Assembly: GCA_030620925.1 (NCBI GenBank)
Contig: JAUXIQ010000075.1
Location: 1 to 8,068, forward strand
Length of the DNA: 8,068 bases
Direction of reading: 5' to 3'
Origin: JAUXIQ01 sp030620925 [NCBI: Nitrospinota bacterium]
Lineage (GTDB): Bacteria; JAUXIQ01
Shown: piece after piece, positions 4,655 through 8,068 of the stretch
Layout of the letters: each line of letters starts with the position of its first letter
Position numbering within the stretch: position 1 is the first letter of the stretch
Program-made: the position numbers and the translations under genes
The notes under the pieces: model-generated
What the model was told of the DNA's origin: nothing
The model's input: only the letters and a program-made list of their open reading frames with translations
Databases searched by the model: none

Positions 4655-5752
4655 ATGCTGATAACACGGATTTCAATAAAAGACCTGGACTGGGTTCTCC
4701 TGGCTCTGACCTTGAGCCTCGCTTCGATAGGCTTACTGGCCATATACAGCGCCACCCACGGGAAGGGGGTCAGCTCGGTAGACGTTTATTACATCAGGCA
4801 GATATGGTGGCTGGCGATAGGTGCACTGTTTATGGCCTTCACCACCCTGGTGGATTACAGGACTCTGGGAAGATATGCCTATGTCTTCTATGGGATCATA
4901 GTGCTTTCTCTCGCCTACTTACTTCTGTTCGGAAAAGCCGTCTCAGGAGCTCAGCGCTGGATAGAGCTGGGCTCGATAAACTTTCAACCTTCAGAGTTGT
5001 CCAAAGTCATACTGGTGCTGGCCTTGGCCAAATGCCTCCAGGATAAAAGCCGCGGCGGCCTGTTAGGGTTCCGCAGTCTCCTCTTGCCCGTAGGTCTGGT
5101 GCTACTGCCTTTCGCACTGGTGGTCAAACAACCGGACCTGGGTACGGCCCTCCTGCTGGCTCTCATGGCGGTGATCATGGTCTTCCTGTGCGGCATAAAA
5201 CGCCGCACTCTTATTTATATGCTGGTGTTGGCTCTTGGGCTCACACTTCTGTTGTGGTATTTCATGGAAGACTACCAGCAAGGGCGGGTAATAAACTTCC
5301 TCTACCCCAACGCCGACCCCAGCGGTGCCGGTTATCAAAGCCTGCAATCCAAAATAGCAGTGGGCTCGGGAGGAATCACGGGCAAAGGGATCATGGCCGG
5401 CACACAAAGCGGCCTCAATTTTCTCCCTGAAAAACACACGGATTTTATTTTCGCCGTGGTGGCTGAGGAACTGGGATTTTTTGGCTCCTCTCTGGTATTA
5501 TTTCTATATCTTGCTATAATAATCAAAGGGCTGAACATAGCTTTCAGCGCCAGGGACCTCCTGGGAGTATTGATGGCCGGCGGCGTGGTGATCATGCTCT
5601 CCCTTCACGTGGTACTGAATATCGCCATGACCGTGGGAATGGCGCCGGTGGTGGGAATACCGTTGCCGCTCATGAGCTACGGCGGCTCCTCGGTGGTCAC
5701 TACCATGGCCGGCATCGGCCTGTTGATGAACGTCAGGATAAATAAGTCTTGA
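4655..5752 (+). CDS. rodA: RodA, SEDS-family peptidoglycan glycosyltransferase
   Basis: RodA is a polytopic inner-membrane enzyme that polymerises lipid II into glycan strands, which PBP2 then crosslinks. The 365-residue product has the usual RodA length and about ten hydrophobic segments. Family motifs are present: AQRWI (99-103), FQPSELSK (110-117), KQPDLGTAL (158-166), PEKHTDFIF (258-266) containing Asp263, which corresponds to the catalytic aspartate of SEDS enzymes, and GIPLPLMSYGGSS (334-346). Two nucleotides separate the ATG from the mrdA stop, which implies translational coupling; no strong SD is visible. It is the last gene of the rod operon, with a terminator hairpin about 80 nt downstream. 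FtsW or SpoVE would be the alternatives within the family, but position and length favour RodA. Confidence 0.96.
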   Translation: MLITRISIKDLDWVLLALTLSLASIGLLAIYSATHGKGVSSVDVYYIRQIWWLAIGALFMAFTTLVDYRTLGRYAYVFYGIIVLSLAYLLLFGKAVSGAQRWIELGSINFQPSELSKVILVLALAKCLQDKSRGGLLGFRSLLLPVGLVLLPFALVVKQPDLGTALLLALMAVIMVFLCGIKRRTLIYMLVLALGLTLLLWYFMEDYQQGRVINFLYPNADPSGAGYQSLQSKIAVGSGGITGKGIMAGTQSGLNFLPEKHTDFIFAVVAEELGFFGSSLVLFLYLAIIIKGLNIAFSARDLLGVLMAGGVVIMLSLHVVLNIAMTVGMAPVVGIPLPLMSYGGSSVVTTMAGIGLLMNVRINKS

Positions 5753-5768
5753 ACGATGGATAGGGCGA

Positions 5769-5793
5769 TTACCCCCCTGAAAAGGGGAGGTAA
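5769..5793 (+). repeat. GC-rich hairpin with GAAA tetraloop after rodA
   Basis: TTACC plus CCCCT (5769-5778) pairs with AGGGG plus GGTAA (5783-5787, 5789-5793). This gives ten base pairs with a single bulged A at 5788 and a GAAA loop at 5779-5782. No T-run follows directly, so it is not a classical intrinsic terminator. It may protect the 3' end of the rod mRNA, act as an auxiliary termination signal, or be a remnant of an interspersed repeat. Confidence 0.5.
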
Positions 5794-5834
5794 CGGTAGG
5801 TCGATTAAAATAAATTATTTAACGAACAAGCTTA

Positions 5835-5861
5835 ACCCCGCCTATGGCGGGGTGGGTTTTT
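5835..5861 (+). terminator. Intrinsic terminator of the rod operon
   Basis: ACCCCGCC (5835-5842) and GGCGGGGT (5846-5853) form a perfect eight-base-pair stem closed by a TAT loop. GGG and five Ts (5857-5861) follow. The orientation fits termination of transcripts arriving from rodA. The three-base spacer before the T-run makes it slightly non-ideal, but the stem is strong. Confidence 0.75.
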
Positions 5862-5875
5862 CCAATAAAAGGTTC

Positions 5876-5900
5876 TCTCGAAAGTCTTACTCCTTCGAGA
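5876..5900. promoter_or_regulatory. Inverted repeat upstream of the methyltransferase, possible operator
   Basis: TCTCGAA at 5876-5882 is the exact reverse complement of TTCGAGA at 5894-5900, with 11 nt between them. The second arm ends 28 nt before the methyltransferase ATG. The position suits an operator or a leader hairpin. No clear -35/-10 pair is visible between the terminator and the gene, so how the gene is transcribed remains open. Confidence 0.4.
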
Positions 5901-5928
5901 CGATTAAGAAGGGTTTACCTGCGCCTCT

Positions 5929-7209
5929 ATGACCGTTCATAAGATCATCATCGGTGATTCCAGGGATATGAAGGAGGTTCCCGACGGGGCCGTCCACTTC
6001 ATAATCACCTCGCCGCCTTACTGGCAATTGAAAGATTACAACCACGCAAACCAGATAGGCTTCGGCGACAGCTACGAAGACTATATAAACAACCTCAGCC
6101 TGGTCTGGAATGAATGCCACAGGGCGCTCCACGATGGGTGCCGCCTCTGCGTCGTGGTGGGAGACCAGTTTGCCCGCTCCGCGTACTACGGGCGTTACAA
6201 GGTCATACCCATCCGTACGGAGATAATAAAATTCTGCGAGACTCTGGGGTTCGATTACATGGGAGCCGTCATCTGGCAGAAGGTCACCACCTGTAACACC
6301 TCAGGTGGCGCAACCATTATGGGCTCCTATCCCCATCCCAGAAACGGCATACTGAAAATCGACTACGAATTCATCCTCAACTTCAAGAAACCGGGAAAAC
6401 CGCCGAAGGTCAGCCCTGAAATCAAGGAAGCCTCCAGGCTCTCACTGGAAGAATGGAACGAATACTTCGCAGGTCACTGGAATTTCAGCGGGGAAAAGCA
6501 GGATAAGCACCTGGCCACCTTCCCTGAGGAGCTCCCCCGACGATTGATCAAGATGTTCAGCTTCCAGGGGGAGACGATCCTGGACCCTTTTTTGGGCAGC
6601 GGCACCACCACCGCGGCCGCCGCAAGGCTGGGCAGAAATTCCGTCGGCTATGAGATAAACGCGGAATACCGACAAACCATCGAGGACAGACTGTCAGAGA
6701 CCGTCAGCCTCGCAGGGAATAACCACGATGTAGAAGTAATTGAACAACGGCCTGAAAAAATCGACTTCAATAAGAAAATAGAAAAACTGCCTTACGTTTT
6801 TAAAGACCCTGTGTGTTTTCGGAGAAAAATCCACCCCGGGGCATTGAACTTCGGTTCCAAAGTAGACGGTTCGGAAAAGGAGCCTGAGACGTATCACAGA
6901 GTCCAAAAGATAGTTTCCCCCTGCGAGGTAGTCCTGGACAGCGGCCGAAAAATCAACCTCATGGGAATTAAGCCCAACGGGAGGACGGATGCCCAGGCCC
7001 GACAACTATTGGAAAAACTCACTAAAGGAAGTAAAATATATTTACGGTTCGATGGTAACGATAATGGAACGAATTGCTACCTCTACCTCAAGAACAAGAC
7101 GTTTGTCAACGCCCATCTGGCGAAAAGCAGTCTTGTGGATGTAGACACGACTCAAGATTACAAATTCAAACAAAAATTTCTTAAATACAAAGAATCGGCT
7201 GTCGCCTGA
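5929..7209 (+). CDS. Beta-class DNA methyltransferase with SNase-like C-terminal domain
   Basis: The product is a predicted S-adenosylmethionine-dependent methyltransferase acting on exocyclic amino groups of DNA bases (N4-cytosine or N6-adenine; SPPY favours N4-cytosine). The 426 residues show catalytic motif IV TSPPYW at 27-32, a probable target-recognition region at about 115-195, motif X-like HLATFPEELPRRLI at 194-207 and the SAM-binding motif DPFLGSGTT at 219-227. This order is the beta class (N4/N6 methylase family PF01555). Residues 260-320 look like a linker. Residues of about 321-423 resemble a staphylococcal-nuclease OB-fold (DSGRKINLMGIK, then KGSKIYLRFD, then FVNAHLAKSSLVDVDT) without its catalytic residues. 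The ATG is the only standard start after the in-frame TAA at 5905, although AAGAAGGG lies 15 nt away, unusually far. No restriction endonuclease gene is adjacent, so it is either an orphan methyltransferase or has a distant partner. The recognition sequence cannot be read from the gene. Confidence 0.92.
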   Translation: MTVHKIIIGDSRDMKEVPDGAVHFIITSPPYWQLKDYNHANQIGFGDSYEDYINNLSLVWNECHRALHDGCRLCVVVGDQFARSAYYGRYKVIPIRTEIIKFCETLGFDYMGAVIWQKVTTCNTSGGATIMGSYPHPRNGILKIDYEFILNFKKPGKPPKVSPEIKEASRLSLEEWNEYFAGHWNFSGEKQDKHLATFPEELPRRLIKMFSFQGETILDPFLGSGTTTAAAARLGRNSVGYEINAEYRQTIEDRLSETVSLAGNNHDVEVIEQRPEKIDFNKKIEKLPYVFKDPVCFRRKIHPGALNFGSKVDGSEKEPETYHRVQKIVSPCEVVLDSGRKINLMGIKPNGRTDAQARQLLEKLTKGSKIYLRFDGNDNGTNCYLYLKNKTFVNAHLAKSSLVDVDTTQDYKFKQKFLKYKESAVA

Positions 7210-7243: not shown

Positions 7244-8068
7244 ATGAGTGTTTATGACGAGCTGCTGCCTCACGTAAAAAAACCATCCAGATACCTGGGA
7301 TACGAGATAAATGCAGCAGCTAAAGATTTGAGCAAGGTGACCGTTAAGGTGGCCCTGGCCTTCCCGGATTTGTATGAGATAGGTATGTCCCATCAGGGGC
7401 TTAAGATTCTCTATCACATCCTGAACTCTCGGCCCGATTCCGCCGCTGAGAGAGTTTTCATCCCCGATGAGGACTACATCGCCCTCCTGGAGGAAAGAGG
7501 GCTCGAGCTCTGCAGCCTCGAGTCTCAACTGCCCCTTTCCCGATTCGACCTGGTCGGCTTCACGCTGCAGTATGAGCTCAGTTACACCAACATACTTCAC
7601 ATGCTGCGGCTGGGCGGCATACCGTTGCGCCGGGAAGAGCGAGGCGAAAAAGACCCCTTCGTCATTGCCGGAGGCCCCTGCGCTTTCAACCCCGAACCGC
7701 TCGCTGACTTTTTCGACGCCGTGGTTCTCGGCGACGGCGAGGAAGTGATACTGGAGATAGTGGAGGCTTATCGCCGACACCGCAAAGAAGGGGGGGAAAG
7801 GACGGACTATCTGGAGCGCCTTGCCGGCATTGAAGGGGTATACGTCCCCTCGTTTTTCGAAGTGAGAGACGGCCTGGCGGAGGTCCGTCCCCTTCTCGAC
7901 GGCTGCACCACCGTGACCGGCCGGTTGGTGGAAAACTTGGACGTCGCCCCCTATCCCACCAGGCCTGTGGTCCCCTTCATGGAAATCGTGCACGACAGGC
8001 TAACAGTGGAGGTCGCCCGGGGGTGCACCAGAGGATGCCGCTTCTGCCAGGCGGGGTGCATCTGCAGG
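7244..8068 (+). CDS. Radical SAM protein, TIGR03960-like (partial, 3' end missing)
   Basis: This is the first 275 codons of a gene cut by the window edge. An N-terminal Rossmann-like region (about 35-180), of the kind annotated as B12-binding in this family, includes ALAFPDLYEIGMSH (37-50), GFTLQYELSYTNILHML (105-121) and IAGGPCAFNPEPLADFFDAV (141-160). A radical SAM domain then begins at about 250, with the iron-sulfur motif CTRGCRFC placing cysteines at 261, 265 and 268 (CxxxCxxC). These phrases match what I recall of TIGR03960, a widespread family of uncharacterised function often encoded near rod-shape genes, DUF2344 and RNase G genes. The substrate is unknown. The ATG fits the family N-terminus (ELLPHVKKPSRYLG). 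AAGAAGGG lies 14 nt upstream, and 34 nt separate it from the methyltransferase. Residues 271 and 273 are additional cysteines. Confidence 0.9.
   Translation, partial: MSVYDELLPHVKKPSRYLGYEINAAAKDLSKVTVKVALAFPDLYEIGMSHQGLKILYHILNSRPDSAAERVFIPDEDYIALLEERGLELCSLESQLPLSRFDLVGFTLQYELSYTNILHMLRLGGIPLRREERGEKDPFVIAGGPCAFNPEPLADFFDAVVLGDGEEVILEIVEAYRRHRKEGGERTDYLERLAGIEGVYVPSFFEVRDGLAEVRPLLDGCTTVTGRLVENLDVAPYPTRPVVPFMEIVHDRLTVEVARGCTRGCRFCQAGCICR

What the first reader, a model, noticed from the sequence alone, without database searches (positions are those of the whole stretch)
6889..7197. Methyltransferase carries a degenerate staphylococcal-nuclease-like domain
Residues of about 321-423 follow the SNase pattern: a strand with DSGRKINLMGIK where active enzymes have DGDT..VRLxGID, a helix ARQLLEKL followed by KGSKIYLRFD, and FVNAHLAKSSLVDVD where SNases have VNxxLxxxGLAxV. 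In this hand alignment the catalytic Arg of the RL motif is Asn342, the Asp of GID is Lys348, and the second Arg (in YGR) falls at Thr/Asn. The domain would therefore be inactive as a nuclease and may serve as an OB-fold that helps the methyltransferase bind DNA or RNA, or recruits a partner. I recall similar tails on other methyltransferases of this family, so the fusion is probably conserved, but I know of no function assigned to it.
Basis: partly seen in the sequence, partly recalled or inferred. Interest (0 to 1): 0.68.

Follow-up and report, generated by a model that had tools for sequence, protein, structure and literature searches.

The report
Methyltransferase with dead nuclease-like tail
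A bacterial DNA-methylating enzyme carries at its end a domain with the shape of a well-known nuclease but without its cutting residues; the same fusion recurs in many kinds of bacteria, usually beside a restriction enzyme, and the dead domain most likely helps the enzyme hold DNA.

Summary
Residues ~319-426 of the 426-aa protein (window 6883-7206) are a staphylococcal-nuclease (SNase) fold fused to a beta-class TSPPYW DNA methyltransferase. The window's tail alone misses Pfam SNase, but 80 of 81 aligned family tails match it (E<=1, best 8.6e-11), the AlphaFold model matches SNase at Z 15.3, and profile comparison with 30 other SNases gives E 8.7e-23. Catalysis is lost family-wide: of 89 tails none keeps the Asp40 calcium ligand (76 have Lys/Arg). 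The Arg35 equivalent is lost in the window (Asn343, not 342) but is Arg/Lys in 84 of 89. In 22 of 26 genomes with an MjaI-type (CTAG) restriction enzyme, a tail-bearing methyltransferase sits beside it; the window's copy is solitary, with no such enzyme found in its ~89%-complete genome. Tail-less natural versions stop near residue 317, so the tail is a modular accessory. [quoted passage not shown] this function is inferred. A second fusion lineage has also lost the methyltransferase's catalytic Tyr.

The parts
5929..7209 (+). Gene for the 426-aa fusion protein (stop included)
   Evidence: PADLOC Type II MTase model PDLC03259 matches residues 1-420, E 1.9e-182
5929..6702 (+). Beta-class DNA methyltransferase core, residues 1-258
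   Evidence: PF01555 2.9e-41; closest solved chain 2zie TTHA0409 (Foldseek E 2.7e-24)
6007..6024 (+). Catalytic motif TSPPYW, residues 27-32
   Evidence: sequence; T27-W32 invariant in the 81 sequences of A2
6583..6603 (+). AdoMet-binding motif DPFLGSG, residues 219-225; it follows TSPPYW, i.e. beta-class order
   Evidence: sequence; D219, P220, F221, G223, S224, G225 invariant
6784..6870 (+). Conserved linker LPYVFKDP...FGSKVD, residues 286-314; present, in two cases diverged, in 5 of the 6 tail-less relatives, so it belongs to the methyltransferase module
6883..7206 (+). SNase-like domain, residues 319-426, catalytically degenerate
6955..6957 (+). Asn343 at the SNase Arg35 position (Arg/Lys in 84 of 89 tails)
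6970..6972 (+). Lys348 at the SNase Asp40 calcium-ligand position (Lys/Arg in 76 of 89, Asp in 0 of 89)
7066..7068 (+). Gly380 at the SNase Arg87 position; about four nearby loop residues (KYD region) kept by most relatives are missing in the window
4655..5752 (+). Upstream neighbour rodA (end of mreB-mreC-mreD-mrdA-rodA), context only
   Evidence: TIGR02210 1.2e-120
7244..8068 (+). Downstream neighbour, TIGR03960 B12-binding radical SAM protein (cut by window end); it stands where most relatives have the restriction enzyme
   Evidence: TIGR03960 6.9e-104

Best explanation
The protein is a solitary Type II beta-class DNA methyltransferase (probably N4-cytosine, possibly CTAG) with a C-terminal SNase-fold domain that no longer cuts. 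Shown by computation: fold, homology to SNase, family-wide loss of the calcium site and mostly of the catalytic glutamate, wide conservation, partnership of most relatives with an MjaI-type restriction enzyme, and modular presence or absence from residue ~317 on. Inferred: the domain is a non-catalytic module that grips the DNA backbone with its reshaped, basic former active-site face (Arg/Lys343, Lys/Arg348 in relatives), raising affinity or residence of the methyltransferase on DNA, much as the unrelated C-terminal domain of CcrM holds the non-target strand. It is an enhancer, not part of the catalytic minimum.
For: Fold and homology. No intact calcium site in any of 89 tails. The Arg35 position stays basic in 84 of 89, Asp40 becomes Lys/Arg in 76 of 89, and tails average +4.7 net charge over about 98 residues, window +7, against +1.5 for the 2.6-times longer core. 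The junction 301-320 is of low confidence (pLDDT about 55) between two confident domains, as for a flexible tether. The tail persists without the restriction enzyme: 7 genomes with a tail-bearing methyltransferase and no PF09568 hit. Natural tail-less relatives at 64-68% identity exist. In a second lineage both catalytic sites are lost yet the fusion is kept. Precedents: CcrM C-terminal non-specific DNA-binding domain (PMC6787082, abstract and passages); degenerate SN domains in Tudor-SN (PMC5900569, passages).
Against: No binding data. The invariant tail residues are mainly SNase fold-core positions, not an obvious DNA face. The window has lost the Arg343 that would be central to the proposed patch. 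AlphaFold gave no domain-placement (PAE) information here. Protein binding would fit nearly as well. CcrM's domain is essential, whereas tail-less enzymes exist here, so the analogy is loose.
Confidence: 0.5

Rival explanations
1. The tail is a protein-protein module: it dimerises the methyltransferase or couples it to the adjacent MjaI-type restriction enzyme (stoichiometry, coupling, or ordering of modification before restriction).
For: Most tail-bearing methyltransferases sit directly before the restriction gene, 75 paired of 105 tail-bearing. 22 of 26 genomes with PF09568 have a tail-bearing partner beside it. Tails and linkers of solitary copies are less like the consensus than those of paired copies (tail residual on core p 0.007, linker p 0.0016).
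Against: Tails are kept in solitary copies including the window (19 of 22 solitary; 7 of 10 genomes without the enzyme). G003 has an apparently intact enzyme with a tail-less methyltransferase. With tree-based branch lengths the extra divergence is not significant (tail:core 2.31 vs 1.95; p 0.17 rank test, 0.11 permutation). The tail/partner association is not significant by genome (22/2 vs 7/3, p 0.14).
Confidence: 0.22
2. The tail binds the operon's own DNA or RNA and regulates expression of methyltransferase and restriction enzyme.
For: The restriction reading frame often overlaps or directly follows the tail-coding end. SNase folds are nucleic-acid binders (family knowledge).
Against: No conserved operator was sought. 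Solitary copies keep the tail. Autoregulating methyltransferases usually carry helix-turn-helix domains (recalled).
Confidence: 0.12
3. The tail is a working nuclease.
For: SNase fold. 17 of 89 relatives keep Arg at both catalytic Arg positions, 14 have Glu at the Glu43 column, and Tudor-SN shows that partly degenerate SN domains can cut RNA (PMC5900569 passages).
Against: Asp40 in 0 of 89, Asp21 in 4 of 89, Glu43 in 14 of 89, and about nine loop residues missing in all 89, against Asp40 26, Glu43 28, Arg35 29 and Arg87 28 of 30 SNases taken by position. The window lacks all five residues.
Confidence: 0.03
4. The tail is a neutral remnant of an old fusion, without a present role.
For: It evolves about twice as fast as the core and is absent in several close relatives.
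Against: L344, G346, Y384, L387 and N394 are invariant in all 89 tails and N389 is kept in 88 of 89. It is kept across widely differing bacteria (record titles) at 31-51% identity to the window's tail and in frame on long solitary branches.
Confidence: 0.1

Closest known systems
PADLOC Type II methyltransferase model PDLC03259
   Same: The window protein, tail included, matches it over residues 1-420 (E 1.9e-182), so the family itself was already modelled
   Different: The model is named only 'Type II methyltransferase'; the SNase nature of the tail and its role are not in the name
MjaI/MthZI (CTAG) restriction-modification systems
   Same: Beta-class methyltransferase next to an MjaI-family endonuclease; M.MthZI on pFZ1 aligns at 32% over the core
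   Different: M.MthZI (355 aa) has no SNase match in its C-terminus; characterised CTAG enzymes are 303-364 aa (PMC5867850, passages); the window has no restriction gene
Staphylococcal nuclease family (PF00565)
   Same: Fold, topology and profile homology
   Different: Calcium site lost in all, catalytic Glu lost in most, loop over the active site shortened
CcrM
   Same: Beta-class methyltransferase with a fast-evolving C-terminal accessory domain (PMC6787082 passages)
   Different: The CcrM domain resembles SAND/PWWP, not SNase, and is needed for activity; here natural tail-less enzymes exist
Tudor-SN / extended Tudor domains
   Same: Degenerate SNase folds that have outlived full catalysis (PMC7641849 passages; PMC5900569 passages)
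   Different: Eukaryotic, RNA or methylarginine binding, different fusion partners; Tudor-SN still cuts RNA through SN1 and SN3
TTHA0409 (PDB 2zie)
   Same: Closest solved methyltransferase core
   Different: 297-residue chain matched only over query residues 3-259; no matched tail

Membership tests
SNase-like domain (PF00565) | SNase fold b1-b2-b3-a1-b4-b5-a2-a3 | tested here: met
   (Z 15.3, 109 residues, 2.3 A)
SNase-like domain (PF00565) | Profile homology to SNases | tested here: met
   hhalign 99.5%, E 8.7e-23 with 30 SNases; 80 of 81 members match PF00565 at E<=1, the window's own tail does not
SNase-like domain (PF00565) | Catalytic and calcium residues (Asp21, Arg35, Asp40, Glu43, Arg87; numbering recalled) | tested here: not met
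   window C332, N343, K348, G351, G380; Asp40 in 0 of 89 tails
SNase-like domain (PF00565) | Nuclease activity | not testable with these tools
   needs an assay; therefore not filed as a nuclease
Beta-class DNA methyltransferase (PF01555) | S/TPPY motif before the FxGxG-type motif, PF01555 match | tested here: met
Beta-class DNA methyltransferase (PF01555) | Transfers methyl to N4 of cytosine | not testable with these tools
   TSPPYW suggests N4-cytosine (recalled); no methylome here
MjaI-type (CTAG) restriction-modification system | Adjacent RE_MjaI (PF09568) gene | tested here: not met
   none next to the window's gene and none found in G000, about 89% complete; met in most relatives
MjaI-type (CTAG) restriction-modification system | CTAG specificity | not testable with these tools
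   inferred only from the partner of relatives
CcrM-type C-terminal domain | SAND/PWWP-like fold | tested here: not met
   the tail is SNase-like; the resemblance to CcrM is of layout only

The most novel reading that the evidence does not exclude
SNase folds have been recruited, with a conserved exchange of the calcium-site Asp for Lys, as a dedicated DNA-holding module of DNA methyltransferases. In one lineage (G257, G119, G384, G404, with partial copies in G405 and G406) this went on to a doubly inactive protein (SPPY to SPPA/SPPI plus a dead SNase) that keeps the AdoMet motif and a conserved gene neighbourhood, i.e. a methyltransferase-derived DNA-binding or sensing protein.
Probability: 0.3. 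Interest if true: 0.62.

Novelty: new variant of a known kind. Interest (0 to 1): 0.42.

Why it matters
Accessory domains decide how restriction-modification and solitary methyltransferases find and hold DNA. A widespread family whose tail is a disarmed nuclease, with close natural tail-less relatives and both paired and solitary versions, gives a ready comparison for testing what such a domain adds. It also adds a prokaryotic case to the known reuse of degenerate SNase folds in eukaryotes. The family itself was already modelled, so this is an annotation and mechanism question rather than a new system.

Tried and rejected
Sequence-only detection of the window's tail failed: Pfam gave Toprim_2 at E 0.18 and the PDB search gave chance matches. 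Antibody light chains in the PDB list are treated as chance. A restriction enzyme elsewhere in the genome was sought and not found (genome about 89% complete, so absence is not proven).

First SNase comparison set (21 sequences) was picked with a recalled sequence motif that includes Arg35, Asp/Asn40 and DGD, so its conservation at those columns was partly built in. I therefore repeated it with all 30 SNase loci cut by position only; the report uses that control. It gives the same picture with slightly lower numbers; 9 of 30 do not reach the Asp21 column.

Idea that the tail decays once the restriction enzyme is lost: suggestive by identity to consensus (p 0.007 for the tail, 0.0016 for the linker), not significant with tree branch lengths (p 0.17 and 0.11), nor is tail presence (p 0.14); not claimed. 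In one search four rows (L003, L008, L009, L010) and rows with too little downstream sequence were dropped (83 of 89 used). In one search the tests used the 88 of 94 rows with core branch above 0.02. In 'solitary' means no restriction-gene match in at least 1 kb of fetched downstream DNA (the window was accepted with 862 bases); only the genomes were checked genome-wide. The genome table 22/2 against 7/3 leaves out G295 (partial restriction frame at a contig end) and G203 (remnant).

Stand-alone tails: apparent ones (G073:C80, G011:C4) are fragments near contig ends with a restriction-gene trace beside them. Other hits of the tail profile in 290 genomes that I inspected (G285, G187, G087) are SNases with the usual catalytic motifs, apart from the G257 fusion; G083 ran into a 995-residue frame and was not resolved, and the remaining weaker hits were not inspected. 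Plasmids and phages: 3167 and 240 records match, every best place under 60% identity; 2 plasmid and 0 phage records cover 80% of the query, the two at 33% and 23% identity. IMG/VR: 4 tail hits and 80 kept methyltransferase hits; of the nine viral loci inspected, tail-bearing are L244 (with restriction gene), L245/L248 (one contig) and L246/L251 (one contig, split frames), while L247, L249, L250 and L252 show no tail.

Literature: no paper on an SNase-methyltransferase fusion surfaced (open-licence PMC only; subscription journals not searched). Searches were on CTAG methylation; of their listings two papers were opened for passages, the second not used. PADLOC, NCBIfam and Pfam names were seen only as listed.

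Full report
What is there. The window reads mreB, mreC, mreD, mrdA, rodA, then the gene of interest at 5929-7209, then a TIGR03960 radical SAM gene. The 426-aa product has a beta-class methyltransferase core (PF01555 2.9e-41) with TSPPYW at 27-32 and DPFLGSG at 219-225, a conserved linker (286-314) and a tail (319-426). Its closest solved relative is TTHA0409.

Is the tail an SNase fold? On its own the window's tail is invisible to Pfam. Relatives settle it. A scan of GTDB genomes gave 225 confirmed stretches, of which the best 80 were kept (record titles name proteobacterial, planctomycete, Nitrospirae, Omnitrophota, Elusimicrobia, Ignavibacteria, Bacteroidales, Clostridia and other MAGs). 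The aligned sets A1/A2 are the window plus these 80. Of 81 tails, 80 match PF00565 singly at E<=1, best 8.6e-11 (how many pass Pfam's own cut-off was not counted; three more distant members scored 18.3, 20.6 and 21.1 bits against a cut-off of 21). The profile finds 34 PDB sequences at E<=10, all SNase entries or an SNase derivative, best 3.2e-4. The AlphaFold model of the tail (pLDDT 84) has the SNase topology; all 50 listed Foldseek hits are staphylococcal nuclease (best E 3.5e-6) and VIA-align gives Z 15.3 over 109 residues at 2.3 A. Against 30 SNases cut by position from other genomes hhalign gives 99.5%, E 8.7e-23 (with a first, motif-picked set of 21 it gave 99.6%, 1.4e-23). In the full-length model the tail is also confident (ten-residue means mostly 87-91), while the junction 301-320 (about 55) and the region 120-144 are not.

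What is lost. Among 89 tails against the 30 SNases (SNase numbering recalled): Asp21 is Asp in 4 of 89 (Glu in 57), in SNases 20 of the 21 that reach the column; Arg35 is Arg 65 plus Lys 19 of 89, in SNases 29 of 30; Asp40 is Asp in 0 of 89 (Lys 68, Arg 8), in SNases 26 of 30; Glu43 is Glu in 14 of 89, in SNases 28 of 30; Arg87 is Arg in 17 of 89 (Asn 53), in SNases 28 of 30. About nine residues of the loop after Glu43 are missing in all 89. Since no tail keeps Asp40, none has the full set. The Asn100 position is Asn in 89 of 89. The window is at the degenerate end: C332, N343, K348, G351, G380, and a shortened b4-b5 loop. The exchange of a calcium ligand for a basic residue while Arg35 stays basic suggests a reshaped rather than simply decayed site; that is my inference.

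Company. In 60 of 90 loci one neighbour cluster lies downstream (57 of its 61 ORFs immediately); its representative is RE_MjaI, PF09568, 1.6e-44. In a survey of 386 genomes 26 had PF09568; beside it lies a tail-bearing methyltransferase in 22 (in G211 with the frames split, in G037 and G064 at contig ends), a tail-less one in 3 (G003, G157, G295) and only a remnant in 1 (G203). Pooled over 111 distinct methyltransferases from all loci: with tail 75 paired, 19 solitary, 11 remnant or contig edge; without tail 2 paired, 3 solitary, 1 remnant or edge. This pool favours tails, because 80 loci were chosen by full-length score. The window's genome has no PF09568 hit, nor do 15 further genomes checked, which include the six other solitary tail-bearing genomes G148, G144, G134, G314, G179 and G033 (M. 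jannaschii rings as control).

Modularity. G003, G388, G278 and G103 carry tail-less enzymes that match the window over residues 2 to 312-320 at 64-68% identity. In G278 the frame runs from about residue 317 into what by eye reads like the start of the restriction gene, though the restriction profile does not call it. So the core can do without the tail, and the join lies just after the linker.

Does the tail depend on the restriction enzyme? Identity to consensus is lower in solitary tails than their cores predict (p 0.007, 67 paired and 16 unpaired rows), but on a fixed tree the terminal-branch ratio tail:core is 2.31 solitary against 1.95 paired (19 and 75 rows; p 0.17 rank test and 0.11 permutation on the 17 and 71 rows with core branch above 0.02). 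Tail presence by genome, 22/2 against 7/3, gives p 0.14. I conclude that dependence is not shown.

A second fusion. The tail profile also found a 474-490 aa protein in G257 with relatives in G119, G384 and G404 at 36-38% over the full length, and partial ones in G405 and G406. It matches PF01555 (7.3e-30) and PF00565 (8.2e-8), but the catalytic Tyr of SPPY is Ala in 4 and Ile in 1 of 5 readable sequences, and the SNase catalytic motifs are lost too in the alignment. Its upstream neighbour (a PLP enzyme by eye) is shared by 5 of 6 loci; the sixth contig ends before it. No PF09568 was found in the six genomes. A fusion kept after both active sites have gone fits binding rather than catalysis as the role of the SNase fold.

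Mechanism and comparison. I favour a DNA-backbone-binding accessory domain (about 0.5). CcrM is the model for this layout: an N-terminal beta-class methyltransferase and a C-terminal non-specific DNA-binding domain, with about 46% and 14% identity among orthologues (PMC6787082, abstract and passages); the CcrM domain is SAND/PWWP-like and essential, so this is analogy, not membership. Degenerate SNase folds in Tudor-SN and extended Tudor domains show that the fold can outlive its catalysis (PMC5900569 and PMC7641849, passages). CTAG specificity is a guess from the restriction partner: M.MthZI, characterised as a CTAG m4C enzyme (PMC5867850, passages; that the pFZ1 gene is M.MthZI is recalled), sits beside an MjaI-family enzyme on pFZ1 but is only 32% identical over the core and has no SNase match.

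Novelty. PADLOC already has a full-length Type II methyltransferase model for this family, and Pfam can mark SNase in members, so neither family nor architecture is unseen by databases. I found no paper that discusses the fusion (open-licence PMC only). I therefore rate it a new variant of a known kind, with the function of the tail open and testable.

Noticed in passing
L350 1958-3415 (G257:C206); L352, L353, L354, L355, L366: A second methyltransferase-SNase fusion in which both active sites are degenerate (SPPA or SPPI instead of SPPY in 5 of 5 readable; SNase residues lost), with a shared upstream neighbour in 5 of 6 loci.
   Followed up: partly
L206 2951-3976 (G278:C24): A tail-less methyltransferase whose frame runs from about residue 317 into what by eye looks like the start of the restriction gene, as if a deletion removed the tail and killed the partner.
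   Followed up: partly
L153, L211, L212 (G033, G314, G179): Tail-bearing solitary copies with about 35-45 extra residues inserted in the methyltransferase core near residue 195.
   Followed up: no
L244 2912-4897; L245/L248; L246/L251 (IMG/VR contigs): Tail-bearing methyltransferases on contigs classed as viral, one with the MjaI-type restriction gene, one with the gene split over frames; the contigs may be proviruses or misclassified host DNA.
   Followed up: no
nine loci such as L043, L045 (neighbour clusters 1, 4, 5): The system sits directly after an argF-like gene in 9 loci, with argD- and argB-like genes further upstream in 7; the shown representatives are planctomycete MAGs, a possible stable chromosomal site (gene names by eye from sequence).
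   Followed up: no
window 5753-5928: The methyltransferase gene lies between rodA and a TIGR03960 gene with a 176-bp upstream gap, suggesting insertion behind a cell-shape operon.
   Followed up: no
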